Translations under genes and position numbers: made by a program | The notes under the pieces: generated by a model | Databases searched by the model: none | What the model saw: the letters and a program-made list of their open reading frames with translations, nothing else | What the model was told of the DNA's origin: nothing | Assembly (NCBI RefSeq): GCF_027107535.1 | Contig: NZ_CP114283.1 | Location: 4,588,001 to 4,652,000 of the forward strand | Direction of reading: 5' to 3' | DNA: 64,000 nt | Source: Streptomyces aurantiacus | Lineage (GTDB): Bacteria; Actinomycetota; Actinomycetes; Streptomycetales; Streptomycetaceae | Shown: positions 35,387 to 64,000 of the stretch, piece after piece | Position numbering within the stretch: the first letter of the stretch is position 1 | Layout: the number at the start of each line of letters is the position of its first letter

Positions 35387-35399
35387 CGTGTTCTTCTCC

Positions 35400-36500: not shown

Positions 36501-36543
36501 ATCCGTGAAGTCCACCTTCTGAGGAGTCGGCTGGGAGTTCGAC

Positions 36544-36594
36544 ACCTCGATACTCTGACGCACCGCGCTTGAGGGGCACTTGGAGCGGACTCGG
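36544..36594 (-). promoter_or_regulatory. SARP-like heptamer array upstream of the type III PKS
   Basis: Plus-strand ctcga (36546), cttga (36568), cttgg (36579) and ctcgg (36590) are spaced 22, 11 and 11 bp; read on the minus strand they are TCGAG/TCAAG/CCAAG/CCGAG boxes. A weak -10 lies at about 36552-36557. Confidence 0.65.
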
Positions 36595-48372: not shown

Positions 48373-49221
48373 CTACGTCGACAGTGCCAGCCGGCTGAGA
48401 TCGGCACGGGGGTAGCTGCCCAGGACGTGGACGGCGTGGCGCCGGGCGAGGGTGGCGACGACGAGGCCGACCTCGGGGTCGTCCACGTGCCCCTCGCATT
48501 CGAGGAGGAAGAAGTAGGTGCCCAGGCGGGAGCCGCCGGGCCGGGACAGCACCGCTGTCAGCGGCACGCAGGCGCGGGTGAACTCCTCCAGTACGGCGTG
48601 CAGCTGCTGCATCTTGTCGGCCAGCGGCACGACCATGCTGGTGCGGTCGGCGCCGGTGGGCAGGGAACCGACGGTGGGCGGGGCGACCTTGACGAAGCGG
48701 GTCACCGCGTCCTGCCGGTCGCCGATGTCGCAGGCGACGATCTTGAGGCCGTAGCGCTCGAGGGTGTTGGGGGCGGCGATGGCGGCGAGACCGGGTGCGC
48801 CGGTGGTGCCGACCTCCCGGGCGGCGTGTGCGGTGGAGGACGTGGTGACCACATCGGCCCGCGGCAGGTGGTCGTCGAGCCAGGTGCGGCACTGGGCGTG
48901 CGCGATGGGATGCGTCAGGACCTGCCGGATGGAGCCGAGGGTGCCGGCCGGGGGAACGGCGAGCGCGAACTCCACACGCAGCAGCGTCTCGCCGACGATG
49001 GACAGGTTGCGTCCGGCGACGAGCGCGTCGACGGACTCCGTGACGGCACCCTCGACCGAGTTCTCCCAGGGGATGACAGCGGCGGTGGTCTCCGCGCGGC
49101 GCACCGCGTCGAGGGCCTGGCGGACCGTGGGATAGGGCACCGCGTTGTGGTGCGGGATGTAGAGCCCGTGCAGAGCTGCTTCGGTGAACGAGCCGGGCGG
49201 GCCCAAATAGGCGATGGACAT
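48373..49221 (-). CDS. pheA: Prephenate dehydratase (ACT domain altered)
   Basis: 282 residues from ATG 49221 (GTG 49224 is also possible). The catalytic domain shows MSIAYLGPPGSFTEAALHGL, AAVIPWENSVEGAVTESVDA and the TRF motif in RQDAVTRFVKV. It makes phenylpyruvate, the last step before phenylalanine transamination. The C-terminal ACT domain lacks the usual GAL and ESRP allosteric signatures (here VPLADKMQQLHAVLEEF and LSRPGGSRLGTYFFLLEC), so it may be insensitive to Phe feedback, as expected for a dedicated pathway copy. It is the last gene of the minus-strand operon. Confidence 0.9.
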   Translation of the reverse strand: MSIAYLGPPGSFTEAALHGLYIPHHNAVPYPTVRQALDAVRRAETTAAVIPWENSVEGAVTESVDALVAGRNLSIVGETLLRVEFALAVPPAGTLGSIRQVLTHPIAHAQCRTWLDDHLPRADVVTTSSTAHAAREVGTTGAPGLAAIAAPNTLERYGLKIVACDIGDRQDAVTRFVKVAPPTVGSLPTGADRTSMVVPLADKMQQLHAVLEEFTRACVPLTAVLSRPGGSRLGTYFFLLECEGHVDDPEVGLVVATLARRHAVHVLGSYPRADLSRLALST

Positions 49222-49248
49222 CACAAGTTACCTTCCGGGCTCGACCGG

Positions 49249-50469
49249 TCAGACGGCGCTCCAGGCGCCGGCCACGGCGATGGCCTGTCGGGGGTTGAGC
49301 CGCGGGTCGCACAGCGTGGTGTAGTGCCGGCCGACGTCGGCGGACTGGGACGTGCTCCAGACGCATTCCGTGACGTCGTCCGGCGTGGTCTCGAGGTGGA
49401 GGCCGGACGCGACGCCGCCGGCTTTGGCGACGGCCTGCTGGAAGGCCACGATCTCTTCGATGACGGTGTGCACCGACCGGGTCTTGAGGCCGGTGGCGGT
49501 CTTGGTCGTGTTGCCGTGCATCGGGTCGCACAGCCAGGACACCGGATGCCCGGCCTCGCGGACGGCCGTGACCAGCGCCGGCAGGCGCGCGGCGACCTGG
49601 GCGACGCCCATCCGGGCGATCAGTGTGAGACGGCCGGGCTCCCTGTTCGGATCGAGCCGGGCGCACAGCACGGTCAGCTCCGCGGGTGTCATGGTGGGGC
49701 CGACCTTGCAGGCCACGGGGTTGGCGACCGTGGCGAGCAGCCCGACGTGGGAGCCCTGCGGATGGCGGGTCCGTTCCCCGATCCAGGGCAGGTGGGTGGA
49801 GGACAGGTAGCTCTGGCCGCCCATCGCGCGGCGCAGCAGCGGCCGTTCGTAGTCCAGGACCAGCGCCTCATGGCTGGTCCACACGGGCGCTCCGGTCGGC
49901 GGCATCCAGGCACCGGTGCGCTGACGCAGCAAGGTGGTGGCCCGGTCCGCGGCCGCGTAGCAGGCGAGCATGCGGTCGGGGTCGGCGCGGCGCTCCTCCA
50001 GGGTGGCGGCGGGGCCGTTGACCAGATGGCCGCGGTAGACGGGCAGTTCGCGCCCGTCGACGACCTCGGTGGGGGAGCTGCGGGGCTTGGCGAACTGGCC
50101 GGCGATGCGGCCGATCCGGATGACCGGCCGGCCGGTGTTGATCTTCATGACGCCCGCCAGCGCGTCGATCAGGCCGATCTTGCGGTTCACCGCCTGCCCT
50201 CCGCACTCGGCGGGGTCCTCCGCGCAGTCCCCGGCCTGGATGATCTGGTAGGTGCCGCCGGCCGCCTCGGCCATCAGCATGCGCAGCATCTGCACCTCCT
50301 CCCAGCCCACCAGGCCCGGCCGGGCCGCGAGTTCGGCCCGCACGGCGGACGCGCGCTGCGGGTCGGCCCACACGGGTTGCTGTTCCTCAGCGACGAGCCG
50401 GCCCGGGCCGACGCCGAGGGCTGCCGGCGGCCGCAGATCGCGGTCACGAACGGATGATGCCGCGGACAT
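49249..50469 (-). CDS. Class II 3-deoxy-7-phosphoheptulonate (DAHP) synthase
   Basis: 406 residues from ATG 50469 (AAGGAG seven bases away). It shows class II (plant-type) signatures: GGTYQIIQAGDCAEDPAECG, VIRIGRIAGQFAKPRSSPTE, LPWIGERTRHPQGSHVGLLA and VSWLCDPMHGNTTKTATGLK, with HLETTPDDVTECV near the C-terminus. It condenses phosphoenolpyruvate and erythrose-4-phosphate, the entry step of aromatic biosynthesis. Duplicate class II genes in antibiotic clusters (for example for phenazines) boost precursor flow. It lies 2 bp after the chorismate mutase gene. Confidence 0.92.
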   Translation of the reverse strand: MSAASSVRDRDLRPPAALGVGPGRLVAEEQQPVWADPQRASAVRAELAARPGLVGWEEVQMLRMLMAEAAGGTYQIIQAGDCAEDPAECGGQAVNRKIGLIDALAGVMKINTGRPVIRIGRIAGQFAKPRSSPTEVVDGRELPVYRGHLVNGPAATLEERRADPDRMLACYAAADRATTLLRQRTGAWMPPTGAPVWTSHEALVLDYERPLLRRAMGGQSYLSSTHLPWIGERTRHPQGSHVGLLATVANPVACKVGPTMTPAELTVLCARLDPNREPGRLTLIARMGVAQVAARLPALVTAVREAGHPVSWLCDPMHGNTTKTATGLKTRSVHTVIEEIVAFQQAVAKAGGVASGLHLETTPDDVTECVWSTSQSADVGRHYTTLCDPRLNPRQAIAVAGAWSAV

Positions 50470-50471
50470 GA

Positions 50472-50912
50472 TCAGGCTCCTTGGGGCAGAGGGAAGTCGG
50501 TTCCCGGGGTCGGGGCACTCAGGTCGGGGCGCAGCGCCGCCGCCCCGCCGAGATAGACGTGGTGCATGGCGTCGCGGGGCCGCCTGCTGTGCACATGCGC
50601 CAGAATCCGGATGACGCGGTGCAGGGAGCCCGGGACCGCGATCTCGGCGGTGCACAACAGCGGTACATCGGTCAGGCCCAGCTTCCTGGCCGCGGCCGCC
50701 GGGAAGGCGGAGCGCAGGTCGTGGGTGGTGGTGAAGACGATGCTGATCAGGTCCGCATCGCCCAGGCCGTTGCGCCGCAGGATCTCGCCGAGGAGTTCAC
50801 TGGTGGCCTGTTCGATGAGGGCGGGGTCGTCGGAGGCGACCTGGGCGGCACCGCGCACGGCACGCACGGTGAGCGCGCCGGGTCCGCTCGCCTGGCTGGT
50901 CGGGGTCGTCAC
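50472..50912 (-). CDS. aroH: AroH-type chorismate mutase
   Basis: 146 residues from GTG 50912 (AGGAG). It aligns with the trimeric Bacillus AroH: VRAVRGAAQV (Arg7 equivalent), LISIVFTTTHDLRSAFPAAA, and LLCTAEIAVPGSLHRVIRIL holding the Cys75, Glu78 and Arg90 equivalents. It converts chorismate to prephenate for the adjoining prephenate dehydratase. It is a pathway-specific copy; the housekeeping streptomycete enzyme is usually of the AroQ type. Confidence 0.9.
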   Translation of the reverse strand: MTTPTSQASGPGALTVRAVRGAAQVASDDPALIEQATSELLGEILRRNGLGDADLISIVFTTTHDLRSAFPAAAARKLGLTDVPLLCTAEIAVPGSLHRVIRILAHVHSRRPRDAMHHVYLGGAAALRPDLSAPTPGTDFPLPQGA

Positions 50913-50957: not shown

Positions 50958-51203
50958 TCAGGCCCTCTGCCCGGTCAGCAGGCCGCACAGGGCGGAGATG
51001 GAGCGCGCCTGCGGCAGCCCGTCCAGGGGCAGTACCACCTGGAACTGCTTCTCCACCCGCGCGACGATCTCGATGAGGTTGAGCGAGTCGGCCAGGTAGT
51101 GGTCGAAGAGGTCCGCGCTGTCGTCGATCTCGTGCGGACCCAGTGCCAGGATCTCCGCGACGATCGCGCGGACCGTTGAGATCGGGTGGTCGGTGTCGTT
51201 CAT
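50958..51203 (-). CDS. Free-standing acyl/peptidyl carrier protein
   Basis: 81 residues from ATG 51203. Phosphopantetheine site DSL within LADSLNLIEIVARVEKQFQV. Helix 1 is ISTVRAIVAEILALGPHEID. Its start overlaps the stop of the first dehydratase-like gene. Between an adenylating enzyme and two hotdog proteins, it most likely carries the phenylpropanoid-type acyl or aminoacyl group. No ketosynthase is present, so it probably hands over the group without chain extension. Confidence 0.9.
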   Translation of the reverse strand: MNDTDHPISTVRAIVAEILALGPHEIDDSADLFDHYLADSLNLIEIVARVEKQFQVVLPLDGLPQARSISALCGLLTGQRA

Positions 51204-51697
51204 CTGCCGTCCTTCACTGGATGCGGTGCCGGTGGGGTGGGGAGCAGGCTTGCGGAAGGGCGCGAGACGACGAGGATCGAGCCCACGGTGAGGACCGTCC
51301 GGCCGGCTGCCTGCGTCTGTCCGGTGAACTCACCGACCGCGCCGGAATGGTGGCTGAGCTGTACATGGTGTTCCAGGACATCGCCGGGCACGGCCGGCGC
51401 GGCGTAGTGCAGGTCGCGGATGCCGACCATCAGCGGGACCTCGTCCGGCGGGCCGAGCCCGGCGAGCGACCACAGCAGGGAGACGGCCTGGCCGAACGAT
51501 TCGAGCAGGAGCACCGACGGATAGGCGAAACCGCCGATGCCGGTTCCGTCCGCCAGGTGCCGGTAGCAGTCCTCCCCACCGGTGATCGCCTTGGTGGCGA
51601 CGAGCGAGTGGGGCGGTGAGAACGTGCGCACCGTGTCGAGCAGGAGCATGGGAGGGCGCTGGCGGAGCCGATCGCGCACCTGGCTGTGGTCAAGCAC
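51200..51697 (-). CDS. FabZ-like hotdog protein lacking the catalytic His
   Basis: 165 residues from GTG 51697. Hotdog dehydratase features: RPPMLLLDTVRTFSPPHSLV, a central helix YPSVLLLESFGQAVSLLWSL with Glu, and the strand MVGIRDLHYAAPAVPGDVLE. The family GHFPG motif is GGFAYP here, so the catalytic His is missing. It probably acts as a partner of the second hotdog protein or binds a substrate without dehydrating it. Overlaps with both neighbours show tight coupling. Confidence 0.78.
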   Translation of the reverse strand: MLDHSQVRDRLRQRPPMLLLDTVRTFSPPHSLVATKAITGGEDCYRHLADGTGIGGFAYPSVLLLESFGQAVSLLWSLAGLGPPDEVPLMVGIRDLHYAAPAVPGDVLEHHVQLSHHSGAVGEFTGQTQAAGRTVLTVGSILVVSRPSASLLPTPPAPHPVKDGR

Positions 51698-52097
51698 CGG
51701 CCACCACCGCTTCGAGCGTGAGGGACAGCTCCGCCGCCATCAGGCCATCGGCACGTGTCCCCCGGGCGCGGACCGTGACCCGGCTGTCCGGTTCGGACGT
51801 CACCAGCAGGGACAGCTCCAGTTCGTCGCCCGCAAACAACGGGCGGGCGAAACGCGCACGGTCGATACGGCACAGCCGAAGCTCGCCGCCGAGGGCACAA
51901 CCGGCTGCCTGGCGCACCCCCTCGATCAAAAGGACCCCCGGCAGGATCGGGAAGCCCGGATAGTGGCCGGCCATCTGCGCGGCGGCCCGCTCCACGGGCA
52001 GCCGCACCGTGACGCGAAGGCCCTCGGGGGTCCGCACGCTCTGCGGCGGTCGGTGCAGCGCGTCGAACACCGTCGCGGTCCGGGACGAGGCAGGCAC
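51690..52097 (-). CDS. FabZ/FabA-like hotdog dehydratase
   Basis: 135 residues from GTG 52097 (GAGGAG). It retains the active-site segment MAGHYPGFPILPGVLLIEGV with catalytic His and Glu, and the second strand CRIDRARFARPLFAGDELEL. It would dehydrate 3-hydroxyacyl-ACP. With the His-less neighbour it may form a heterodimer, as in some polyene and cinnamoyl pathways. Its true substrate is unclear because no ketosynthase or ketoreductase is in the window. Confidence 0.82.
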   Translation of the reverse strand: MPASSRTATVFDALHRPPQSVRTPEGLRVTVRLPVERAAAQMAGHYPGFPILPGVLLIEGVRQAAGCALGGELRLCRIDRARFARPLFAGDELELSLLVTSEPDSRVTVRARGTRADGLMAAELSLTLEAVVAGA

Positions 52098-52105
52098 GGC
52101 GCTCC

Positions 52106-53659
52106 TCAGCCCAGGCCCGGCTCGGCGAGCAGGCGCTGCGCGAGCGTTTCCACGTAATCGGTGATCGTCACGTCGTGGTCGAGGTAGGGGACCAGCTCAC
52201 GCGTCTGCTCGTAGAGCCGCCGGGTCGCCGGCGACAGACCGTCCGTGCCCCGGATGTCGACGGCCTGGCAGGCACACAGCAGCTCGAAGGCGACCACGTA
52301 CGCGACGTTGTCCAGCACCTCCCTGGCGCGCCGGGCCGCGACGAAACCGAAGGAGACGATGTCCTGGAAGTCGCCGGTCGAACTCAGCGACTGGATGGAG
52401 ATGGGCATGGACTTCGCCCTGGTCTCCGCGGTCAGTGAGGCGGTCATGAACTGGCCGCCCATCAGACCCAGCCGCAGGCCCGGGTTCTCCTGGCACAAAA
52501 ACGCCGGAAGCCCCTCGCTGTTGCTCTTGTCGAGATACCGGTCGATGCGGCGGTTGGACAGGTTCATCAGCGTCGTCAGCGCGATCGCCAGATGGTCCAT
52601 CGCCATGGCCACGTACTGCCCGTGGAAATGCCCGTTGTGGAACACCTCGGCCTCGTCGGGGTCGATCAGCGGGTTGTCGTTGGACGAGTTGAGCTCGTCC
52701 TCGACGACCTGCTCGATCGAGGCGAGACTGTCCACGACCGGCCCCAGGATCTGCGGGGTGCACCGGATCGAGTAGGCGTCCTCGATGGACTGCGATCCCG
52801 CCTTCGCGGTGTCCCCCATCTCACCCGACAGAAGGTGCTCGGTGTCGAGCTCGTCGACCGCCAGAGTGGAGTCGGCCAGCGTCTCCCACAAGAACTCGGC
52901 GACCGCCTGCTGGCCCTTGTGCGGCTTGAGCGCGTGGACCCGCGGGTCGAACGGCTTGGTCTTGCCGGCCAGGCCTTCCACCGACAGCGCCGAGACCAGC
53001 AGGTACGACTGCAGCAGCCGTCGGGCCCGCGTGATGGTGAGACTGCCCAGACCCACCATGCCGGAGGTGCCGTTGATCAGCGCCAGGCCCTCCTTGAAAC
53101 TGAGCTCCATCGGCTCGATGCCGGCCCGGCGCAGCGCCTCGGCACCCGCAAGGACCTCACCGTCCAGCCGCGCCTTCCCCTGGCCTATGCACACCAGGGC
53201 GATCGCGGCCAGCGGCCCGAGGTCGCCGCTGGTGCCCAGCGACCCCTTCTCCGGCACGCACGGCACGACACCCGAGTTGCGTACCGCGATCAGCTTGTCC
53301 AGGTTGGTCAGGGAGATCGCCGAGTTGCCGCGGGACAGGGACACGATGCGGGACGTCATGATCGCGCGGACCGTGGTGTCGTCGAGATGCTCACCCACGT
53401 TGGTCGCCACGGCGTTGAGCAGGTTCTCCTGGAGCTGGCGGGCCATGGTCACCGGCACCAGATAGTTGACGAAGCCGCCCATGCTGGTGTTGACGCCGTA
53501 GATGACCCGTTCCTCCGCGACGAATTTCTCCAGTGTCTGCCGGGAGGCCTGTACGCGGGCGCGGACGGTGTCGTCGATGGCCACGGAGTCGGCACAGACC
53601 GCGGTCGACGCGACGTCGGCCAGCCGCACCCGCCGGCCGATGGACAAGGTGTAAGTCAC
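52106..53659 (-). CDS. MIO enzyme: phenylalanine ammonia-lyase/aminomutase (EncP-like)
   Basis: 517 residues from GTG 53659 (AGGAG). The MIO-forming triad is TSG at residues 143-145 in EKGSLGTSGDLGPLAAIALV, with RVIYGVNTSMGGFVNYLVPV holding the catalytic Tyr. ELNSSNDNPLIDPDEAEVFH and GHFHGQYVAMAMDHLAIALT complete the pocket. From memory it is strikingly like EncP of the enterocin pathway and AdmH of the andrimid pathway over its full length, so the product is cinnamate or beta-phenylalanine. The neighbouring Phe-supply genes fit this substrate. Confidence 0.93.
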   Translation of the reverse strand: MTYTLSIGRRVRLADVASTAVCADSVAIDDTVRARVQASRQTLEKFVAEERVIYGVNTSMGGFVNYLVPVTMARQLQENLLNAVATNVGEHLDDTTVRAIMTSRIVSLSRGNSAISLTNLDKLIAVRNSGVVPCVPEKGSLGTSGDLGPLAAIALVCIGQGKARLDGEVLAGAEALRRAGIEPMELSFKEGLALINGTSGMVGLGSLTITRARRLLQSYLLVSALSVEGLAGKTKPFDPRVHALKPHKGQQAVAEFLWETLADSTLAVDELDTEHLLSGEMGDTAKAGSQSIEDAYSIRCTPQILGPVVDSLASIEQVVEDELNSSNDNPLIDPDEAEVFHNGHFHGQYVAMAMDHLAIALTTLMNLSNRRIDRYLDKSNSEGLPAFLCQENPGLRLGLMGGQFMTASLTAETRAKSMPISIQSLSSTGDFQDIVSFGFVAARRAREVLDNVAYVVAFELLCACQAVDIRGTDGLSPATRRLYEQTRELVPYLDHDVTITDYVETLAQRLLAEPGLG

Positions 53660-53668
53660 GTGTGGCTC

Positions 53669-55273
53669 CTAAGCGTTCGTAGCGTGTCGTACATCCGATG
53701 TCCCCCGGGGGGAGGCCAGCTTCTGCGTGAGCAAGGCGCGGTCGACCTTGCCGTTCTCGGTCAGGTCAAGCTCCGGCACGGCGCGGATCGACCGGGGCAC
53801 CATGTAGGCGGGCAGCTCCCGCGCGCAGAACGCGAGGGCCGCACCGACGTCGAGATCCGCTCCGGCGCCGTCCAGGACGACGGCCGCCATCAGCACGTGG
53901 TCCCCCGCACGCGGCACCAGGGCGGCCGCGGCCGCCGTCACGCCGGGCAGCCGGGTCAAGGTGCCCTCGATCTCGCCCAGCTCCACCCGGTTCCCGTGGA
54001 TCTGCACCTGGTAGTCGGAGCGGCCCACGAAGCACAGATCACCCTCCGGGCCCAGACGGGCCAGGTCGCCGGTGCGCAGCACCTTGTGCCCGTGCCGCGG
54101 CTCGACCGGGTCGGGCACCAGCACCGCGGCCGTGGCCTCGGGGTCGTTCCAGTAGCCGGTGAACAGCGCCGGGCTGCGCAGGTAGATCTCCCCGACCAGG
54201 CCCGGCCGGGTGACCACGTCGCCCCGCTCGTCCACGAGGGTCATCTCCGCGCCGGCGTGGGCGTGACCGATCGACAGCCGCTCCTGCCCGGCCGGCAGCG
54301 GACGGGGCACGTCGGTGAACGAGGCGGCCATCGACTCCGTCGCCCCGTAGCCGTTGACGACACGGGCGCCGGGAAGCATCTCCTGCAGCCGGCGAAGCTC
54401 GGGGAGGGGGAACTCCTCTCCCGCGAAGACGACCGAGCGCAGCCGCTCCAACTCCTTGAGCAGGTCCGCGTCGTGACGCAGGACCGGACGCCACAGCGAC
54501 GGAACGCCGTGCACCTGGGTGACCCCGGCATCGCGCAGGAAACCGATCATGCGCCGCGGCGAGGAGAGATCCTCCCGCCGGACCGGGACGAGGGTGGCGC
54601 CGCTGCTGAGGGCCACACCGATCCCGAACAGCGCGAAGTCGAACTGCAGCGGTGAGGTGCTGGCCACCCGGTCGTCGGGTCCGGCCAGAGCGTCCTGCAG
54701 CATCGCGCGCAGGAACGTCACGATCGCCCGGTGGCTCATCACCACACCCTTGGGACGGCCCGTCGACCCGGAGGTGAACACGATGTACGCGGTGTCGGTG
54801 GCGAGCACGCTCCGCCGCCGCCGCACCCGGCGCGCCGGCGGGCGCTCCACCACCAGGCCGCCCGGCCCGAAGCGCGCGCTGCCCTGCGCCTCCACCAGCT
54901 CCCTGCGCGCCAGGCCCTCGGCCCGCGCATGGAGCGCGGGTTCGACCGAACGCACGATCGACAGCAGGCGGGTGTCCGGAGTCTGCGGGCTCACCGTCAC
55001 GAACGGCAGGCCCAGCAGGGAGCAGGCGAGCAGCATGGCCACCGACGCCGCCGAGGTGTCCGCCTCGATCACCACGCGGTCACCCACATCGAGACCGAGG
55101 CCGTCCAGGACGGCCGCGTACTCCTGGGCCAGTTGGTCCAGGCGGCGGTAGGAGATCTCCTGGAGAACCCCCTCCGCGTCCGCCTCCACCACCGCGGGCT
55201 TGTCCGGCGAGACGGCCGCGGGCCCCATGAGCAGCCGATAGAGGTTGTCCCCCGAAGGATGCGGGCGTTCCAT
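53669..55273 (-). CDS. Free-standing adenylation enzyme (NRPS A-domain-like)
   Basis: 534 residues from ATG 55273. Motifs: A3 IVFTSGSTGRPKGVVMSH, A5 RVVNGYGATESMA, A7 KVLRTGDLARLG, A8 YQVQIHGNRVELGEIEG and A10 ENGKVDRALL with catalytic Lys. The A4 segment is LQFDFALFGIG; it keeps the Asp (FD) that in NRPS A domains binds the substrate amino group, which points to an amino acid such as beta-phenylalanine more than to cinnamate. It loads the ACP of the same operon. It is the first gene of the eight-gene minus-strand unit, under the promoter element at 55337-55457. Confidence 0.86.
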   Translation of the reverse strand: MERPHPSGDNLYRLLMGPAAVSPDKPAVVEADAEGVLQEISYRRLDQLAQEYAAVLDGLGLDVGDRVVIEADTSAASVAMLLACSLLGLPFVTVSPQTPDTRLLSIVRSVEPALHARAEGLARRELVEAQGSARFGPGGLVVERPPARRVRRRRSVLATDTAYIVFTSGSTGRPKGVVMSHRAIVTFLRAMLQDALAGPDDRVASTSPLQFDFALFGIGVALSSGATLVPVRREDLSSPRRMIGFLRDAGVTQVHGVPSLWRPVLRHDADLLKELERLRSVVFAGEEFPLPELRRLQEMLPGARVVNGYGATESMAASFTDVPRPLPAGQERLSIGHAHAGAEMTLVDERGDVVTRPGLVGEIYLRSPALFTGYWNDPEATAAVLVPDPVEPRHGHKVLRTGDLARLGPEGDLCFVGRSDYQVQIHGNRVELGEIEGTLTRLPGVTAAAAALVPRAGDHVLMAAVVLDGAGADLDVGAALAFCARELPAYMVPRSIRAVPELDLTENGKVDRALLTQKLASPRGTSDVRHATNA

Positions 55274-55336
55274 AGCGTCTCCCTTGTCCGTTGAGTGCGG
55301 CGGCGAGCGGATCCGCCGGCAGTGCCGTGTCGCCTT

Positions 55337-57077: not shown

Positions 57078-57205
57078 CCCAGCCCGCCCACCGATGCCGG
57101 ACCACCGGCAGCGCGCTGTGCGTCGTCGTGCATCCCGGCGACCTGGAGTACGGGCCCGCCTGCGCGGCCGCCGAACACACCGCACAGGACAAGGCCGGCC
57201 GGCCA
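57078..57205 (+). pseudogene. Decayed 5' fragment of a PIG-L deacetylase copy
   Basis: About 120 bp closely matching the first 130 bp of the intact deacetylase gene at 58064: ALCVVVHPGDLEYGPACAAA versus ALCVVAHPDDLEYGPACAVA. The ATG has become CTG and the metal-binding HPDD is HPGD. Homology stops near 57205. It shows a duplication followed by decay. Confidence 0.75.
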
Positions 57206-57826
57206 GCGGTGGCCCCATGCCCCGCAGGACAGCCGTCCGGCCGGACCCGGGCAGGCGGTGCAGGGCCGCGCTGCTGGCGTTGGCCCGGTGCCGGGGCGCT
57301 GACGTGCGGCGCGGCCTGCCGGCGTACACACCTGACGTCGCGGCAGAGGGCGCCGCCGCCCTGAACCCCGGAGCCCGCAGCCGACCGCATCCCCGATATC
57401 TGACGCCCGTGCCGGCGATCCCGCCGGCACGGGCGGCCGCGCAGGGAAACACCGACGGCATCATCGGCGCCCCCTGAGGCCCGCCCGCGATTCACCCCGT
57501 GGCCGCCTCCGGCGCGCCCGATCCCGGCTCTCGGCCCGCCCGCAGATCGTGACCGATGCCGGCACGCGCCCGGTGGCGGCGACCGGCCTGCCGCCGCCCG
57601 GCAGCCGCAACCACAGCCGGGCGCGCACGGAGCCCGGCGCCCACCGGGCCTGCCGCGGCGCACCGGCCCTCACGGCGGCTCCAGAGCACCGGCGGTGTGC
57701 ACCCCGCACCCGCACACGACGAGCCCTCGATGCACTTCAGCCGGCGCCAGGAGCGGACAACGCCCTCCACCGCCGGACGCGAACACATGGCACCCGCCCG
57801 GCGGCGGACGCAAAGGCTTAGCCCCC
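57206..57826. other. Non-coding stretch between deacetylase remnant and copy
   Basis: About 0.6 kb of very high GC without a supported gene. It is probably sequence left from the duplication of the deacetylase region. Confidence 0.5.
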
Positions 57827-58063: not shown

Positions 58064-58795
58064 ATGACCAAGCCGTACGAACCGATGCCGGACGACTGGC
58101 AGCGAGCGCTGTGCGTCGTCGCGCACCCCGACGACCTGGAGTACGGGCCCGCCTGCGCGGTCGCCGAATGGACCGCGCAGGGCAAGTTCGTCGCCTACGC
58201 CATCGCCAGCCGCGGCGAAGCCGGGATCGCCACCATGGACCCGGACACCACCGGTGAGCTGCGCGCCGAGGAGCAGGTGCGGGCCGCGGCCGCGGTCGGG
58301 GTGCGGGACGTGGACTTCCTCGGCCACCCCGACGGCATCATCGAGTACGGCTTGCCGCTGCGCCGTGACATCGCGCGGTCGATCCGCAAGCACCGCCCGG
58401 ACATCCTGGTCACCATCAACTTCTACGACCGGTGGCGCAGCGGAGACTGGAACACCCCCGACCACCGCAACGTCGGCGTCGCCCTGCTCGACGCGGCAAG
58501 CGACGCCGGCAACCCCTGGATCTTCCCCGAACTCCTCGACGAGGGCTTCCCGCCGTGGTCCGGCGTGCGCTGTCTTGCGGTCGGCGGTTCCCCGGACTCC
58601 GGGCACGCCGTCGACTGCACCGACGGCATCGCCGCCGGCATCGAGGCGCTCGCCGCGCACGCCGGCTATCTGGAGTCGCTGCCGCCGGACAACCCGATGT
58701 CCGACTCGGCCGGCTACCTCACCACCAAGCTCACGCGCTTCGGGGAGCGCTTCCACAACGTGCCGACCATGCCGTTCGAGATCATCGGCGTCTGA
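58064..58795 (+). CDS. PIG-L/LmbE family deacetylase
   Basis: 243 residues from ATG 58064 (GGGAGAGG). The zinc motif AHPDDLEYGPACAVAEWTAQ has His-Asp-Asp near residue 20, and the second ligand segment is GDWNTPDHRNVGVALLDAAS. The FLGHPDGIIEYGLPLRRDIA and VTINFYDRWRSGDW segments are typical of this group. These enzymes hydrolyse N-acetyl groups from sugar amines or related amides. The substrate here is unknown; a truncated duplicate lies 1 kb upstream. A terminator follows at 58979. Confidence 0.87.
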   Translation: MTKPYEPMPDDWQRALCVVAHPDDLEYGPACAVAEWTAQGKFVAYAIASRGEAGIATMDPDTTGELRAEEQVRAAAAVGVRDVDFLGHPDGIIEYGLPLRRDIARSIRKHRPDILVTINFYDRWRSGDWNTPDHRNVGVALLDAASDAGNPWIFPELLDEGFPPWSGVRCLAVGGSPDSGHAVDCTDGIAAGIEALAAHAGYLESLPPDNPMSDSAGYLTTKLTRFGERFHNVPTMPFEIIGV

Positions 58796-59011: not shown

Positions 59012-59033
59012 TTCGGCTGTTCAGGAGATGCGT

Positions 59034-59801
59034 GTGCAGCATGCTGTGGAACAGGCCGTACGGATCATCCGGGAGCGATACGCGGAACCGCTCAGCCTCG
59101 ACGACATCTCCTGCGCGGTCCTGGTGAGCAAATTCCATCTCCTGCGCGTGTTCAGACAGGTTACCGGAGTGACCCCGGGGCGCTTTCTCAGCGCGGTGCG
59201 CATCAGTGAAGCGAAGCGCCTCCTGCAGAATTCCGATCTCGCTGTGGCCGCCATATCCTCCATGGTCGGATACGACAGCACCGGAAGCTTCACCAGCCGC
59301 TTCACCGAATCGGTGGGAATCCCGCCCACTCAGTACCGGCAGCTGAGCCGGGGCGAGGGCGAGTTCACCGCGCGCTCCTCGGCCCAGGGGCCGGCCGGCC
59401 GGACGCGCTGCCGGCTGCGCGGTGTGGTCCGGGCCGGGGCGAAACCCCTCTCCCCGATCTACATCGGTTCCTTCGGCGGCCCCATACTCCAGGGGCGTCC
59501 CTCCAGCTGGACCACGGTGGAGGACCTCGGCCCCTTCGCGCTGCAGCAGGTGCCGCGGGGGATCTGCTACCTGCACGCGACGATGCTCGCGGCGCGGGAA
59601 CAGCCGCTGGGGACCATTCTGCTGACGGCCACGCTGGGACCCCTGCACATCGACCCGTACATCAGCTCCGAGGTGGAACTGGTGCTGTGTCCGCAGGTCT
59701 GGTCCACCCCGCCCGTCCTGTTCGCGCCTCCCGGTTTCGAGATGCTCACCGAGAGGGCTCCTCAGCCCGGATTCAAGCGGTTGTCGAGCGGGTTCAAGTA
59801 G
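59034..59801 (+). CDS. AraC family transcriptional regulator
   Basis: 255 residues when started at GTG 59034 (AGGAG six bases upstream; ATG 59028 is too close to that site). The AraC double helix-turn-helix is at the N-terminus (LSLDDISCAVLVSKFHLLRV, ISEAKRLLQNSDLAVAAISS, VGYDSTGSFTSRFTESVGIP). A C-terminal domain of about 150 residues (IYIGSFGGPILQGRPSSWTT, VPRGICYLHATMLA) probably senses a ligand. It lies directly upstream of the repeat-peptide operon, and its last codons overlap the SARP-like array. It may be a second, local regulator. Confidence 0.87.
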   Translation: MQHAVEQAVRIIRERYAEPLSLDDISCAVLVSKFHLLRVFRQVTGVTPGRFLSAVRISEAKRLLQNSDLAVAAISSMVGYDSTGSFTSRFTESVGIPPTQYRQLSRGEGEFTARSSAQGPAGRTRCRLRGVVRAGAKPLSPIYIGSFGGPILQGRPSSWTTVEDLGPFALQQVPRGICYLHATMLAAREQPLGTILLTATLGPLHIDPYISSEVELVLCPQVWSTPPVLFAPPGFEMLTERAPQPGFKRLSSGFK

Positions 59802-59866: not shown

Positions 59867-59980
59867 TAGGGAGAAGACAGGTCGTGACTCAGGCTGCAAC
59901 GCTCTTTGCTGAGCGCGGTGAGGGCCGCGTCTCGGCGGTCCGACGGATCGCCTTCTGTGAACCTTCCGAAGGGATATCGC

Positions 59981-60307
59981 ATGCGCGAAGTCAGGGCAAT
60001 CCGAGTGGAGTCGGCCGACGAGTCCGGCAAGGACCTGTCCGTGTGGGACCGCGCCGGGGACAACCTCTCTGTGTGGGACCGGGCCGGCGAGGACCTGTCG
60101 GTGTGGGACCGCGCCGGGGAGAACCTGTCGGTGTGGGACCGCGCCGGGGAGAACCTGTCCGTGTGGGACCGGGCCGGCGAGGACCTGTCCGTGTGGGACC
60201 AGGCCGGGGACAACCTGTCGGTGTGGGACCGGGCCGGGGAGAACCTCTCCGTGTGGGACCAGGCGGCACCGGTCTGGGACCGAGTGAGGGAACGGCAGGC
60301 GGCCTGA
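59981..60307 (+). CDS. Tandem-repeat Trp peptide, putative multicore RiPP precursor
   Basis: 108 residues from ATG 59981 (GAAGGG seven bases upstream). A 17-residue leader (MREVRAIRVESADESGK) is followed by eight ten-residue repeats, consensus [D/N]LSVWD[R/Q]AG[E/D], with Trp at residues 22, 32, 42, 52, 62, 72, 82 and 92, and a degenerate ninth unit APVWDRVRERQAA. The only differences are R/Q, D/E and N/D exchanges. There are no Cys or Thr, so lanthipeptide, thiazole or thioether chemistry is unlikely. The neighbours (GNAT, haemoglobin and VioD-like monooxygenase) suggest oxidation or acylation of the repeated Trp. I know no family with this repeat. A purely structural repeat protein is the alternative. 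Confidence 0.85.
   Translation: MREVRAIRVESADESGKDLSVWDRAGDNLSVWDRAGEDLSVWDRAGENLSVWDRAGENLSVWDRAGEDLSVWDQAGDNLSVWDRAGENLSVWDQAAPVWDRVRERQAA
60033..60272 (+). repeat. Eight direct 30-bp repeats encoding the peptide units
   Basis: Unit gacctgtccgtgtgggaccg plus a ten-base remainder, repeated without spacers and in frame; copies differ mainly at the third base and at the D/E and N/D codons. Copy number may change by recombination. Confidence 0.95.
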
Positions 60308-60392
60308 CGATCGTCCGACAGCCCCTTCGGCCCGGTAGCCGCGTGCACTGCCGGGCCGGACGGGCTTCGTTCATGTCCCCAAGGGAGTTGCC

Positions 60393-61484
60393 GTGACGAC
60401 ATACCGCCCCGCACCAGCGCTGGACACCGCCGGGCTGCTGGTGCGCACCGACATCCCCCAGAGCTGGGACAGCTGGGCCGGCAGGGCACCGGTCACCCTG
60501 CGCCGGCGCTGGATCTCGCTCGCCGAGGGCAGAATCCCCGGCGGCGTCCGCACCTTCGCTCTGCCGGGCCCCCAGGGAGAACAAGTGGCCCTGGTCGGCG
60601 GCGTGATGCAGGCCCCCACCGGACATGTGCGCTTCGACCCGCAGCGGGTGCTGTCGGGCGGCTCGGCCGCGGACGGCGTGGCCGCCGACGGACCGCACCC
60701 GTGGAAGGGCCGCTCCACCGGCACACTGTTCCCGACCTGTCTTCTGATGGGACCCAACTACGAGTCGGCGCCGGTCGGCCCGGGCGCCCGCGACCCGCGG
60801 CTGCTGGGGGAGTACCTGGACACCCTGCTCGACTGGTGCCGTGAGCAGGGGATACGCAGTGTCTCGGCACTGTTCCTGCGCCCCGACCACCCCGAGTTCC
60901 TGGACGTGCTGCGCACCGCGGGCTTCGACGTGGTGCCCATGGTGGACCGCAGCGACATGGACGTCACCTGGGACGACCTGGACGGCTACATCGCCGGACT
61001 GCGGCGCAACCAGCGCTTCACCGTGCGGCGCGAGCTGCGCGAGATCGCAGCCCGCGGAATCACGGTCAGCGAACGCCCGATCCGCGACGAGGAACCCGAA
61101 CTGCTCCCGCTGCGGGCCCAGCTGATGACCAAGTACGGCGCCGTCCCCGACGCACAGCGCGAGGCGGCCTCGTTCCGGCACCTGCGCGAGCACTTCGGTC
61201 CCGAGAACGTCTGGATCGTCGAGGCCCGCCGGCAAGGCGCCCTGCTCTCCTTCACGATGCTGGTGCGCGACGGCGACCAGTGGACCGCGCTGATGAGCGG
61301 CACCGACTACGAGCACCCCGACGCCTCGTTCACGTACTTCGCCACGATGTTCTACCGCCCTGCCGAACTGGCCCCCGGCCAGGGGATCACCACGATCTCC
61401 TACGGGCTGGGGACCGTGCAGGCCAAGCGGCTGCGCGGCTGCACCGTCAGCACCCTGGCCGCCGCGGGCCTGGTGCTCGGCTGA
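60393..61484 (+). CDS. FemAB/GNAT-like transferase
   Basis: 363 residues from GTG 60393 (AAGGGA). It has a two-lobed GNAT/FemAB pattern: TLFPTCLLMGPNYESAPVGP, VSALFLRPDHPEFLDVLRTA, MDVTWDDLDGYIAGLRRNQR and FTVRRELREIAARGITVSER, and ITTISYGLGTVQAKRLRGCT near the C-terminus. Proteins of this group (FemAB-like) use acyl-CoA or aminoacyl-tRNA donors to acylate amines, including peptides. It is the first gene after the repeat peptide, so it may acylate or aminoacylate the peptide or its fragments; that is inference. Confidence 0.75.
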   Translation: MTTYRPAPALDTAGLLVRTDIPQSWDSWAGRAPVTLRRRWISLAEGRIPGGVRTFALPGPQGEQVALVGGVMQAPTGHVRFDPQRVLSGGSAADGVAADGPHPWKGRSTGTLFPTCLLMGPNYESAPVGPGARDPRLLGEYLDTLLDWCREQGIRSVSALFLRPDHPEFLDVLRTAGFDVVPMVDRSDMDVTWDDLDGYIAGLRRNQRFTVRRELREIAARGITVSERPIRDEEPELLPLRAQLMTKYGAVPDAQREAASFRHLREHFGPENVWIVEARRQGALLSFTMLVRDGDQWTALMSGTDYEHPDASFTYFATMFYRPAELAPGQGITTISYGLGTVQAKRLRGCTVSTLAAAGLVLG

Positions 61485-61523
61485 TCCGACAGAACCCGAC
61501 CGACCGGCTCAAGGAGCATGCCC

Positions 61524-62057
61524 ATGTCGCGCGACTCGACCACCCCGGCCCCCCGGCACGACGGGAAGGTACTCCTTGTCGCCGACCAGGGCCTGCAGTC
61601 CGGCGAGCGGATGAGCGCCGCCCAAGTCGACCGGAAGGTCTCCGACTTCTGGACCGGCATCGGCGGCGCCGCGTTCTTCCAGGCGCTCACCACCGGCTTC
61701 TACGAGCTCGTCGCGCAGGACGAGCTGCTGTCCCCCCTCTTCGCCGTCCCCGACTGGAGCCGTCACGCCGCACGGCTGAACGAACACTTCTGCCGGATCT
61801 ACGGCGAGAACGACCTGAGCGCGGCCTGGGACCCGAAAATGCACCAGGCGCACGCGCACTTCCTCATCTCCCGCGAGCAACGGCTGCGCTGGCTCGCGCT
61901 GATGAAGGAGGCGGGCACCCGACTCGACGCACCCGAACCGCACTTCACCGAGTTCCTCACCATCATGAAGATAGCCAGCGGTGAGATGACCGCGGTGTCC
62001 CGGGGCGCCGCACTGGCCCGCGGTGAGCGGTTCCACTGGGACGGGACCCCGGCATGA
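61524..62057 (+). CDS. Truncated haemoglobin
   Basis: 177 residues; ATG 61524 is chosen because AAGGAG lies seven bases upstream, whereas the ATG at 61518 is too close. The truncated globin pattern shows DFWTGIGGAAFFQALTTGFY (helices A/B with Phe-Tyr B9/B10), HAARLNEHFCRIYG, and the proximal His110 in MHQAHAHFLISREQR, then LRWLALMKEAG with the conserved Trp. It has about 40 extra N-terminal residues compared with usual group II/III proteins. It could bind O2, NO or H2O2 and take part in oxidation of the Trp peptide. Its stop overlaps the next start (ATGA). Confidence 0.85.
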   Translation: MSRDSTTPAPRHDGKVLLVADQGLQSGERMSAAQVDRKVSDFWTGIGGAAFFQALTTGFYELVAQDELLSPLFAVPDWSRHAARLNEHFCRIYGENDLSAAWDPKMHQAHAHFLISREQRLRWLALMKEAGTRLDAPEPHFTEFLTIMKIASGEMTAVSRGAALARGERFHWDGTPA

Positions 62058-63538
62058 GCGGCCCTCCCGTCCGCTCGGTGGCCGTGGTGGGCGCAGGCCC
62101 CGCCGGAGCCTTCTGCGCACTGGAGCTGGCCCGGCTGCTGCCCGATACGGCCATCGACCTCTACGACCGCAACGACCGGGGACCGGGGGCCGGCATCGTG
62201 CTGAGCGACGAGTTCGCCGGGCGCCTGCGGGCCGACCACCCCGACACACTGAAACTGCCGGAGTCCGCCTACGCCGCATGGGACAAGACGGTCACGGTGA
62301 TCGACGGCGAACGCATCGAGTCCGGCGCCTTCGGCATGTCGGGGATCTCCCGGCAGGTCTTCCACGCGCAGGTCCGCGAACTGGCCGCGCGCACCGCCCA
62401 GGTCCGGCTGATCGAAGGCACCGTCACGGACCTGCCGCAGCAGGCGGACCTGGTGGTGCTGGCCGACGGTGCGGGCAGCGAACTGCGCCGCCGGCGGGCC
62501 GGCCGGTTCGCCACCTCCGTCTCCGCGGGCCGCACCCGCTACCTGTGGATGAGCACCCCCTCCGTCCTCGAACCGTGTTTCCTCCTCAAGGACCTGGGAC
62601 CGGGCCCCCTGGTGGTGCACGCCTATCCGCATGCGGCCGACGAGAGCACCTTCATCATCGAGGCCGACCCGGACACCCTGTCCGCCCTGGGCCTGCTCGA
62701 CCTGCCGGCCGCCGAGGCGGAACTGAAGCTCGCCGCACTGTTCTCCAGCGAGCTGCGCGGCGCACCCCTCAAAGCCCGCACCGCCCGCTGGCAGCCGTTT
62801 CGTACCGTCGTCAACCGCCACTGGGCCGACGGGCGGACGGTGCTGGCCGGGGACGCCGCCCACACGGTTCACTTCTCCACCGGCTCGGGCACCGCCCTGG
62901 CCATCGACGACGCCCTGTGTCTCGCCCGATGTATCGCCGCACACGACGATCCGCTCCAGGCGGTGGCCGCGTACGAGAGCATCCGCCGGCCGGTCGCCGA
63001 GCAGGCACAGACGGAAGCGGCGGAGAGCACCGCCTGGTTCGAGCAGCTGTGCCGCGGCGGGCGGCTGGAAGGACACCAGACGGTGTTCGCGCTGCGCAGC
63101 CGCCGGGCGCTGAACACCTACAGCCGGCTGCGGGAGAGGGACCCGGAGTTCGTCGCACGCACCGTGGCGCGGCTGGCCGGCCATCCCACCGACGCGGAAC
63201 CCCTCGACGTGCCGCTGACCGTGGGCCGGGTGCGCCTGGACCACCGGCAGGTCAAGGTCGAGCGCAGCGACGGCCGGTGTGTGCTGCACGGCGCGGACGG
63301 CACCCGGGCGGTGGGACTGCTCGTCGACCGGGCCCCCGACCGGGCGCTGCCGGGGATCGACTTCCTCGCGGTGCGGGCCCGGCCGGAGGGCGGCCGGGTG
63401 ACCAGGTGCGCGGCCGCCGCGCGGATCCGCAGCGCGACGGCGCTCCCGGTCGCGCTGCTGGTCGACGAGGAACTGCCCCGCGACGAGGCCAACACCCTGA
63501 TCGCCTCCGCGCGTACGGACCTGGTGGCCGTGCCATGA
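62054..63538 (+). CDS. FAD-dependent monooxygenase, VioD/aryl-CoA hydroxylase-like
   Basis: 494 residues; its ATG overlaps the globin stop. FAD motif VAVVGAGPAGAFCALELARL at residues 9-28. The segments SGISRQVFHAQVRELAART, LVVLADGAGSELRR (DG motif) and TVLAGDAAHTVHFSTGSGTA (GD motif) follow VioD, the tryptophan-derived-substrate hydroxylase of violacein synthesis, and the N-terminal half of salicylyl-CoA 5-hydroxylase. A C-terminal domain of about 100 residues is extra. A Trp or indole ring in the repeat peptide is an attractive substrate, but an aromatic acid cannot be excluded. Confidence 0.86.
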   Translation: MSGPPVRSVAVVGAGPAGAFCALELARLLPDTAIDLYDRNDRGPGAGIVLSDEFAGRLRADHPDTLKLPESAYAAWDKTVTVIDGERIESGAFGMSGISRQVFHAQVRELAARTAQVRLIEGTVTDLPQQADLVVLADGAGSELRRRRAGRFATSVSAGRTRYLWMSTPSVLEPCFLLKDLGPGPLVVHAYPHAADESTFIIEADPDTLSALGLLDLPAAEAELKLAALFSSELRGAPLKARTARWQPFRTVVNRHWADGRTVLAGDAAHTVHFSTGSGTALAIDDALCLARCIAAHDDPLQAVAAYESIRRPVAEQAQTEAAESTAWFEQLCRGGRLEGHQTVFALRSRRALNTYSRLRERDPEFVARTVARLAGHPTDAEPLDVPLTVGRVRLDHRQVKVERSDGRCVLHGADGTRAVGLLVDRAPDRALPGIDFLAVRARPEGGRVTRCAAAARIRSATALPVALLVDEELPRDEANTLIASARTDLVAVP

Positions 63539-63558: not shown

Positions 63559-64000
63559 TCAGAAGTAGGCGCGCATCAGCTCACTGGACCAGGCCGGACC
63601 CCGCACCTCACCGCGCGGGGCGAACTCGGGCAGATACGGCTTGACGTCGAGCACCGGCGTACCGTCGACGGCATCGAGGCCGTGCACGGTGAGCGTCAGC
63701 CCCTCGACGGCCGCCAGAGTGCACACGGACACCCCGAGATGGTTGGGCCGGTTGGGGGCGCGCTGCGCCAGGATGCCGCGCAGCGGCCAGTCGGTGTTGC
63801 CCCGGGGATGCTGGGCCCCCGTGCAGGTCCGTGTCGCCAGATGGAACGCGAAGATCACCTCGATGTGGGAGTAGTCCTCGAGACCACAGGTCGCCGACGC
63901 CTCGAACACGGCCGCATCCAGTTCGATCCGCGAGACCACCGCCCCCCACGCGTCCTCGTGCACCTGCCGGCGCCCGCCGCGTACCACCCCGATCGGGCTG
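63559..64000 (-). CDS. TrmO/TsaA-like SAM-dependent methyltransferase, 5' end outside the window
   Basis: The open frame continues past base 64000, reading QPIGVVRGGRRQVHEDAWGA at the edge, so the start is beyond the right end. Motifs: GAQHPRGNTDWPLRGILAQR, APNRPNHLGVSVCTLAAVEG and LDAVDGTPVLDVKPYLPEFA, which are the TsaA/TrmO signature. TrmO N6-methylates the threonylcarbamoyl adenosine of tRNA; relatives exist with other targets. It is convergent with the flavin monooxygenase. Either a housekeeping gene at the cluster border or a tailoring enzyme. Confidence 0.85.
   Translation of the reverse strand, partial: SPIGVVRGGRRQVHEDAWGAVVSRIELDAAVFEASATCGLEDYSHIEVIFAFHLATRTCTGAQHPRGNTDWPLRGILAQRAPNRPNHLGVSVCTLAAVEGLTLTVHGLDAVDGTPVLDVKPYLPEFAPRGEVRGPAWSSELMRAYF

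What the first reader, a model, noticed from the sequence alone, without database searches (positions are those of the whole stretch)
59981..63538. Multicore Trp-repeat peptide operon: candidate new RiPP class
A 108-residue peptide with eight LSVWDxAG repeats is followed by a FemAB/GNAT-like transferase, a truncated haemoglobin and a VioD-like flavin monooxygenase, the last two with overlapping codons. Each repeat places one Trp in an identical setting, and there is no Cys or Thr for known RiPP chemistry. A VioD-like enzyme plus a haem protein suggests oxidation of the indole, and the GNAT suggests acylation. I know no described class with this gene set. The repeat could instead be a scaffold or storage protein.
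Basis: partly seen in the sequence, partly recalled or inferred. Interest (0 to 1): 0.95.

Follow-up and report, generated by a model that had tools for sequence, protein, structure and literature searches.

The report
Tandem Val-Trp-Asp peptide gene cluster
A short bacterial protein built of repeated Val-Trp-Asp motifs is encoded, in eleven related gene clusters, beside the same flavin enzyme, haem protein and transferase, and is likely the raw material from which those enzymes would make a new kind of tryptophan-derived natural product.

Summary
Window 59981-60307 encodes a 108-aa peptide with nine V-W-D motifs, followed by a FemAB/GNAT gene, a truncated globin and a VioD-like monooxygenase; the last two overlap by ATGA. 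The set is conserved: 11 distinct loci (Streptomyces, Paractinoplanes, Microbispora, one Streptomyces plasmid) carry a VWD peptide with FemAB, globin, monooxygenase, MFS pump and PIG-L amidohydrolase; a TrmO-like gene is in 10 of 11. In 12 precursors (11 complete) all 116 Trp lie in V-W-D, with no Tyr, while spacers vary in sequence and length. Among 392 same-genus genomes, only the two with this precursor have the specialised globin. The FemAB model matches aminoacyl-tRNA-dependent transferases best, so aminoacylation from charged tRNA is likelier than acetylation. Best reading: a multicore RiPP-type pathway in which the Trp of each VWD is oxidised and tRNA-dependent aminoacylation follows. 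It works like the pearlin pathways, but the Trp here is gene-encoded and internal. No modification, release protease or product is shown. Seven literature searches listed no description. Accessory modules differ (beta-Phe; PigD-like/aminotransferase/FabF), so the VWD-derived unit may be a building block for hybrid molecules.

The parts
59968..59974 (+). Shine-Dalgarno-like GAAGGGA before the peptide's ATG
   Evidence: sequence; a comparable purine-rich stretch precedes the ATG in all 11 complete precursors (by eye)
59981..60307 (+). VWD-repeat precursor peptide, 108 aa, nine V-W-D motifs
   Evidence: relatives upstream of FemAB (or, in L040, of the globin) in 10 other loci
60041..60280 (+). 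span of the nine VWD motifs (spacing 10,10,10,10,10,10,10,7 residues)
60393..61484 (+). FemX-fold transferase (FemAB/GNAT), predicted aminoacyl-tRNA-dependent
61518..62057 (+). truncated globin, group II-like, with N- and C-terminal extensions conserved in the family
62054..63538 (+). VioD / salicylyl-CoA-5-hydroxylase-like class A flavin monooxygenase, 494 aa
   Evidence: 4-base overlap with the globin gene in 11 of 11 loci
63559..64000 (-). TrmO-like methyltransferase, predicted; runs on beyond the window to about 64065
   Evidence: in 10 of 11 loci
58064..58795 (+). PIG-L/LmbE-type metal amidohydrolase, closest solved relative LnmX; HPDD and distal His kept in all 11
59028..59801 (+). AraC-family regulator; similar ORFs read by eye in L033 and L034, annotated as such in L105
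56133..57077 (+). alpha/beta hydrolase, present in 4 of 11 loci; possible release hydrolase
52106..53659 (-). phenylalanine aminomutase (D-beta-Phe forming), accessory module
   Evidence: 887 bits, cut-off 800
53669..55312 (-). AMP-binding amino-acid ligase, accessory module
50958..52097 (-). carrier protein and two FabA-like proteins, accessory module
48373..50655 (-). prephenate dehydratase and class II DAHP synthase (Phe supply), accessory module

Best explanation
The 108-residue peptide, whose nine tryptophans all lie in Val-Trp-Asp motifs and whose relatives sit beside the same enzymes in ten other loci, is likely the multicore precursor of a RiPP-type natural product in which the flavin monooxygenase, probably with its co-translated globin, would oxidise each VWD tryptophan. 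Shown: the peptide family, the invariance of VWD, the conserved gene set (precursor, FemAB, globin, monooxygenase, MFS, PIG-L) and the globin-monooxygenase overlap. Inferred from families and folds: (1) the VioD-like enzyme hydroxylates the indole while it is still in the peptide; (2) the globin takes part in the same step or a second oxidation; (3) the FemX-fold protein adds an amino acid from charged tRNA, either to a nucleophile made by the oxidation or to the freed N-terminus after release; (4) PIG-L hydrolyses an amide in the product; (5) the MFS pump exports it. The varied accessory modules suggest that the VWD-derived unit is joined to other acids or amines.
Against: No modification, product or expression is shown. 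No protease gene was recognised in all clusters; the alpha/beta hydrolase is in only 4 of 11. No conventional leader: seven residues precede the first VWD in L035 and L039. V-W-D offers no free side-chain amine, so FemAB's acceptor is unexplained. L041 keeps FemAB and PIG-L without VWD or globin and with only a weak 59-residue match to the monooxygenase, so those two need not act on the peptide. The monooxygenase model was poor (pLDDT 66.4) and was not used. PF04339 scored just under its cut-off (26.8 against 27). Ten of the 11 loci came from FemAB searches (9 genome contigs and the plasmid), so co-occurrence with FemAB is partly by selection.
Confidence: 0.6

Rival explanations
1. The VWD peptide is a reusable scaffold or docking protein: its repeats bind several copies of the enzymes or of a hydrophobic intermediate, and the peptide itself is not consumed or modified.
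For: Repeats with mostly regular 6- or 10-residue spacing, high Trp and acid content, no recognised protease in all clusters, and varied accessory chemistry around a constant core.
Against: Only V-W-D is invariant, spacing changes from 5 to 12 and copy number from 5 to 16, which is loose for a structural array; the neighbouring enzyme's closest solved relatives act on a Trp-derived indole (match; VioD's role recalled).
Confidence: 0.15
2. A multicore RiPP, but the chemistry is ring cleavage: the globin acts as a haem dioxygenase giving N-formylkynurenine, PIG-L removes the formyl group, the monooxygenase hydroxylates the ring and FemAB aminoacylates the new aromatic amine.
For: It gives each core enzyme a job and supplies the amine that FemAB would need; weak matches of the monooxygenase to kynurenine 3-monooxygenase; PIG-L active-site residues kept.
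Against: Known Trp dioxygenases are not globins (recalled); L041 keeps PIG-L and FemAB without the globin; VioD scores much better than kynurenine monooxygenase.
Confidence: 0.15
3. The ORF is a regulatory leader peptide whose Trp codons sense charged tRNA-Trp, with no fate of its own.
For: Upstream of the enzyme genes and rich in Trp codons.
Against: Val and Asp are as invariant as Trp in the motif; 46-133 residues; in L040 it lies before the globin with FemAB downstream of the monooxygenase. No terminator/antiterminator was sought.
Confidence: 0.04
4. A secreted signalling peptide, as the DPVWD repeats of two other genomes of the genus appear to be.
For: Same V-W-D core in a peptide with a signal-like N-terminus in G393 and G762.
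Against: By eye none of the cluster's peptides starts with a signal-like hydrophobic stretch; the secreted-looking ones have no FemAB, globin or monooxygenase within the 19.5 kb read.
Confidence: 0.05

Closest known systems
Pearlin pathways (ammosamide; bha) with PEARLs and BhaC1/AmmC1
   Same: Works like it in outline: a ribosomal peptide carries a Trp whose indole is oxidised by a flavoenzyme, with aminoacyl-tRNA-dependent additions (PMC12424672 abstract and introduction, PMC10979984 abstract and one section).
   Different: There Trp is added to the C-terminus by a LanB-like PEARL; here many internal Trp are gene-encoded. The transferase has the FemX fold, the flavoenzyme is of the VioD type, and a globin is present.
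QhpG, peptidyl-Trp dihydroxylase of CTQ biogenesis
   Same: A flavoprotein monooxygenase acting on a Trp inside a peptide (PMC7876137, abstract).
   Different: QhpG works on a radical-SAM-crosslinked subunit and makes a protein-derived cofactor; no row of that name is among the 27 solved matches of this monooxygenase.
VioD of violacein biosynthesis
   Same: Closest solved sequence relative.
   Different: Score 124.7 against an equivalog cut-off of 620; 494 aa against a model of 372, with an extra C-terminal part; no peptide substrate in violacein (recalled).
FemX/FemA, Sbb17/Sba18, VlmA, DhpH, PacB (GNAT-fold aminoacyl-tRNA transferases)
   Same: Whole-length fold match to FemX, FemA and Sbb17/Sba18; such enzymes are used in antibiotic pathways (PMC12945691, passages). 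VlmA, DhpH and PacB were not compared here.
   Different: None of the examples in the passages read acts on a ribosomal precursor; specificity here is unknown.
LnmX (leinamycin cluster PIG-L protein; cluster recalled)
   Same: Best solved relative of the PIG-L protein, E 8.9e-73.
   Different: One search for LnmX (listing only) showed no paper on its function.
Multicore RiPPs in general
   Same: Tandem near-identical units with variable spacers in one precursor.
   Different: Named classes with tandem cores use other enzymes (recalled).

Membership tests
RiPP | small gene-encoded precursor next to modification enzymes, conserved as a set | tested here: met
   11 of 11 loci with globin and monooxygenase
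RiPP | conserved core against variable surrounding residues | tested here: met
   116 of 116 Trp in VWD; flanking positions variable
RiPP | leader or recognition sequence | tested here: inconclusive
   no conventional leader; N-terminus is short in the hexad type
RiPP | post-translational modification of the peptide | not testable with these tools
   needs mass spectrometry
RiPP | proteolytic release by a cluster protease | tested here: inconclusive
   among the genes scanned, not all of each locus, no protease common to the loci; the alpha/beta hydrolase, which also hits the S33-peptidase-named model PF12146, is in 4 of 11
Pearlin | LanB-like PEARL (PF04738) | tested here: inconclusive
   no match in the own genome, but the 14 control genomes gave none either
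Pearlin | modified residue added to the peptide C-terminus | tested here: not met
   Trp residues are encoded and internal
FemABX-type aminoacyl-tRNA transferase | double GNAT fold closest to aminoacyl-tRNA-dependent members | tested here: met
FemABX-type aminoacyl-tRNA transferase | catalytic Lys of FemX (Lys305) / DhpH-C (Lys329) | not tested
   Lys345 is invariant in 39 sequences but was not superposed on FemX
FemABX-type aminoacyl-tRNA transferase | uses charged tRNA | not testable with these tools
   needs an assay
Truncated haemoglobin, group II | Pfam Bac_globin; proximal His and Trp G8 (position names recalled) | tested here: met
   46 bits against 21; His112 and Trp125 align with the His and Trp of the T. 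fusca globin and are invariant in the 10 aligned
VioD (violacein) | NCBIfam equivalog cut-off | tested here: not met
   124.7 against 620 bits
PIG-L/LmbE amidohydrolase | HXDD plus distal His metal site (motif from PMC4101496, passages) | tested here: met
   AHPDD and DHR invariant in 11 loci

The most novel reading that the evidence does not exclude
A new RiPP class: near-leaderless peptides of tandem Val-Trp-Asp units serve as a ribosomal supply of a Trp-derived building block that a haem globin-flavin monooxygenase pair oxidises and a FemX-type transferase aminoacylates from charged tRNA, before it is joined to beta-phenylalanine-type or PigD-type partners in hybrid antibiotics.
Probability: 0.4. 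Interest if true: 0.92.

Novelty: new variant of a known kind. Interest (0 to 1): 0.74.

Why it matters
If true, it adds a peptide class with enzymes not met in the RiPP papers listed here: a globin as tailoring partner and a FemX-fold transferase on a ribosomal precursor. It would link ribosomal peptides to hybrid biosynthesis (aminomutase or PigD-like modules) and give a simple genome-mining rule: VWD repeats beside a globin-monooxygenase gene pair with a 4-base overlap. A compact gene set makes the claim directly testable by co-expression.

Tried and rejected
Literature: searches for precursor peptide + tryptophan + truncated hemoglobin + BGC (0 papers), PigD/FemAB/Streptomyces/precursor peptide/hemoglobin/Val-Trp-Asp (26), RiPP/multicore/tryptophan/monooxygenase/Streptomyces/GNAT (30), hemoglobin-like/RiPP/tryptophan hydroxylation and others (38), phenylalanine aminomutase/precursor peptide/GNAT/hemoglobin and others (77), globin + RiPP + heme and others (78, 0 papers) and RiPP/FemX/aminoacyl-tRNA/core peptide/GNAT (82) listed nothing that describes this cluster, judged from the listings; the two largest lists were cut (one search showed 12 of 25). 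Most subscription journals are not held.

Sequence searches: the precursor as a query found one relative only (P0039, partial). A PDB sequence search with the FemAB profile gave nothing at 0.001 and only a ribosomal protein at E 0.44. The monooxygenase structure was too poor to use. PF04738 in the own genome: no match, control silent. One homologous-protein search (of 3) was left unused, so globins free of FemAB were not sought beyond the 392 genomes.

VWD repeats elsewhere: the pattern matched 18 of 392 same-genus genomes and 9 of 394 genomes of the class (G000 in both). The 50 short loci L048-L097 were read; places that got no locus, such as the second contig of G014, were not. 14 genomes hold some ORF with three or more VWD. 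Two have the cluster (G000, G126), two a secreted-looking DPVWD peptide (G393, G762), ten are ORFs in short DNA tandem repeats. Wider stretches were read for seven of those twelve (one is a 3.8-kb contig): none has FemAB, globin or monooxygenase; L101 has one weak adenylation-domain match. Five (G036, G048, G084, G380, G716) were read only in about 3 kb; the first four are in the genus draw of the globin scan (presumably the same 392 genomes), G716 is not.

Loci without the set: of the six FemAB loci lacking it, L045 ends inside FemAB, so its downstream side was not seen.

Mistakes found: the AraC query was translated out of frame; those AraC rows are not used. AraC presence rests. My gene picker mis-called some ORFs, e.g. 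fused frames in L033 and L038; counts rest on tblastn, annotation and direct reading, except that MFS presence in L033-L042 rests's clusters (Pfam-tested only in L002).
Full report
Observation. Window 59981-60307 encodes a 108-residue peptide followed by a FemAB/GNAT gene, a truncated globin and a flavin monooxygenase. The peptide holds nine V-W-D motifs: seven LSVWDxAG, one LSVWDQAA, one PVWDRV. It has no Cys, Thr or Tyr, but ten Ser. Globin and monooxygenase share ATGA. The window lies in a 9.9-Mb genome in two contigs.

A conserved family. Thirty-eight FemAB relatives were found; their alignment A1 recovered 15 loci from the 84,980-species collection. Nine of the 15 (L033-L040, L042) carry the globin, the monooxygenase and a VWD peptide; six (L041, L043-L047) carry neither VWD peptide nor globin, L041 showing only a weak 59-residue match to the monooxygenase; L045 ends inside FemAB. 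A tenth relative lies on a linear Streptomyces plasmid, NZ_CP108708.1 (L105). With the window that makes 11 distinct loci; L004 repeats L035 and is counted once. All 11 have the MFS gene and PIG-L. TrmO-like is missing only in Microbispora L040. DUF6879 was matched in 8 of the 11 (L033, L035-L040, L042) and in L041 (for the window only its right-hand 19 kb, L002, was searched).

The core is V-W-D. In 11 complete and one partial precursor, 116 of 116 Trp are in V-W-D; distance between motifs is 5, 6, 7, 10 or 12 residues, copy number 5 to 16, and flanking positions vary. Decad spacing (LSVWDRAGED) prevails in window, L034 and P0039, is mixed with 5-7 in L033 and L105; hexad spacing (VWDELK) prevails in L035-L040 and L042. 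Val codons are mixed. L036 and L037, whose enzymes are 86-97% identical, have 8 and 16 copies, so copy number changes while VWD does not. This pattern fits selection on VWD itself, as expected of a processed core.

Independence check. Because most loci were found through FemAB, two scans were made without it. The VWD DNA pattern hit 18 of 392 same-genus genomes and 9 of 394 of the class; on reading, only G000 and G126 have the precursor type described here (limits under Tried and rejected). The globin profile hit three of 392 same-genus genomes at E at or below 1e-15: G000 and G126 below 1e-100, and G140 at 5.5e-16 (the best nine candidates of each genome were scored). So precursor and specialised globin coincide, in 2 of 392 genomes. 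Enzyme divergence is correlated among loci, most for globin and monooxygenase (r = 0.951; others 0.72 to 0.86).

Accessory modules. Window, L033 and L105 add a D-beta-Phe aminomutase, AMP ligase and two FabA-like proteins, with shikimate-pathway genes; the carrier protein was seen in the window and L105. The group L035-L039 and L042 adds a FabF-type synthase and a class III aminotransferase in 6 of 6 and a PigD-like protein in 5 of 6 (L036's contig begins inside the aminotransferase gene). The PigD-like one scores 797.5 bits, under the PigD equivalog cut-off of 950; calling the aminotransferase PigE-like is recalled from its place beside PigD. L034 shows neither module in the 16.8 kb read; its contig ends just after PIG-L and its other side was read for 10 kb only.

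Mechanism. I commit to peptidyl Trp oxidation by the monooxygenase-globin pair, then tRNA-dependent aminoacylation, amide trimming by PIG-L, and export. The parallel is the pearlin route, where a peptide-borne Trp is oxidised to a hydroxyquinone and receives amino groups from charged tRNAs (PMC10979984 abstract and one section, PMC12424672 abstract and introduction). It is not a pearlin: the Trp is encoded and internal. QhpG (PMC7876137, abstract) shows that a flavoprotein monooxygenase can hydroxylate a Trp inside a polypeptide. Untested: every chemical step, the acceptor of FemAB, the release step and the product.

Against. L041 has FemAB and PIG-L without the peptide, so these two may act on the small-molecule side. 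No protease is common to the clusters among the genes scanned. The VWD motif also occurs in an unrelated-looking secreted peptide (G393, G762). A scaffold role cannot be excluded.

Verdict. The gene set is real and conserved, and the searched literature listed no description of it; the RiPP reading is the best one but unproven. Filed as a new variant of a known kind, since RiPPs and peptide-borne Trp chemistry exist; a new class is the novel case.

Noticed in passing
L098 9595-9957 (G393) and L099 (G762): Secreted-looking peptide with a signal-like N-terminus and 4-5 DPVWD repeats, upstream of a ClpB/ClpC-like AAA gene in L098, without FemAB, globin or monooxygenase in the 19.5 kb read; possibly a signalling peptide.
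   Followed up: partly
L002 12524-14815 and 14812-15072 (window coordinates about 68524-71072), also L105 28282-30818: A YcaO gene (annotated TOMM leader-binding in L105) with a small ORF beside it, close downstream of the VWD cluster in both genomes.
   Followed up: partly
L041 7808-19994: Actinoallomurus MAG cluster with DUF6879, FemAB and PIG-L but no VWD, next to a Trp-halogenase-like gene, a ring hydroxylase, sugar genes and a Lant_dehydr_C/nitroreductase fusion.
   Followed up: partly
window about 57113-57214; L105 17371-17499 and 36255-37648: A fragment of the PIG-L gene before the full copy; the plasmid also has fragments and a second hydrolase plus PIG-L copy, suggesting local duplication.
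   Followed up: no
window 19129-20112 and 27509-28492: Two ORFs of the same length (327 aa) and the same first 25 residues, perhaps copies of an insertion element.
   Followed up: no
L035-L039 and L042, upstream of the peptide: PigD-like (5 of 6), class III aminotransferase and FabF-like genes (prodigiosin-type module) in actinobacterial clusters.
   Followed up: partly
window 34388-36563: A chalcone-synthase-like (type III PKS) gene beside an O-methyltransferase, upstream of the cluster.
   Followed up: no
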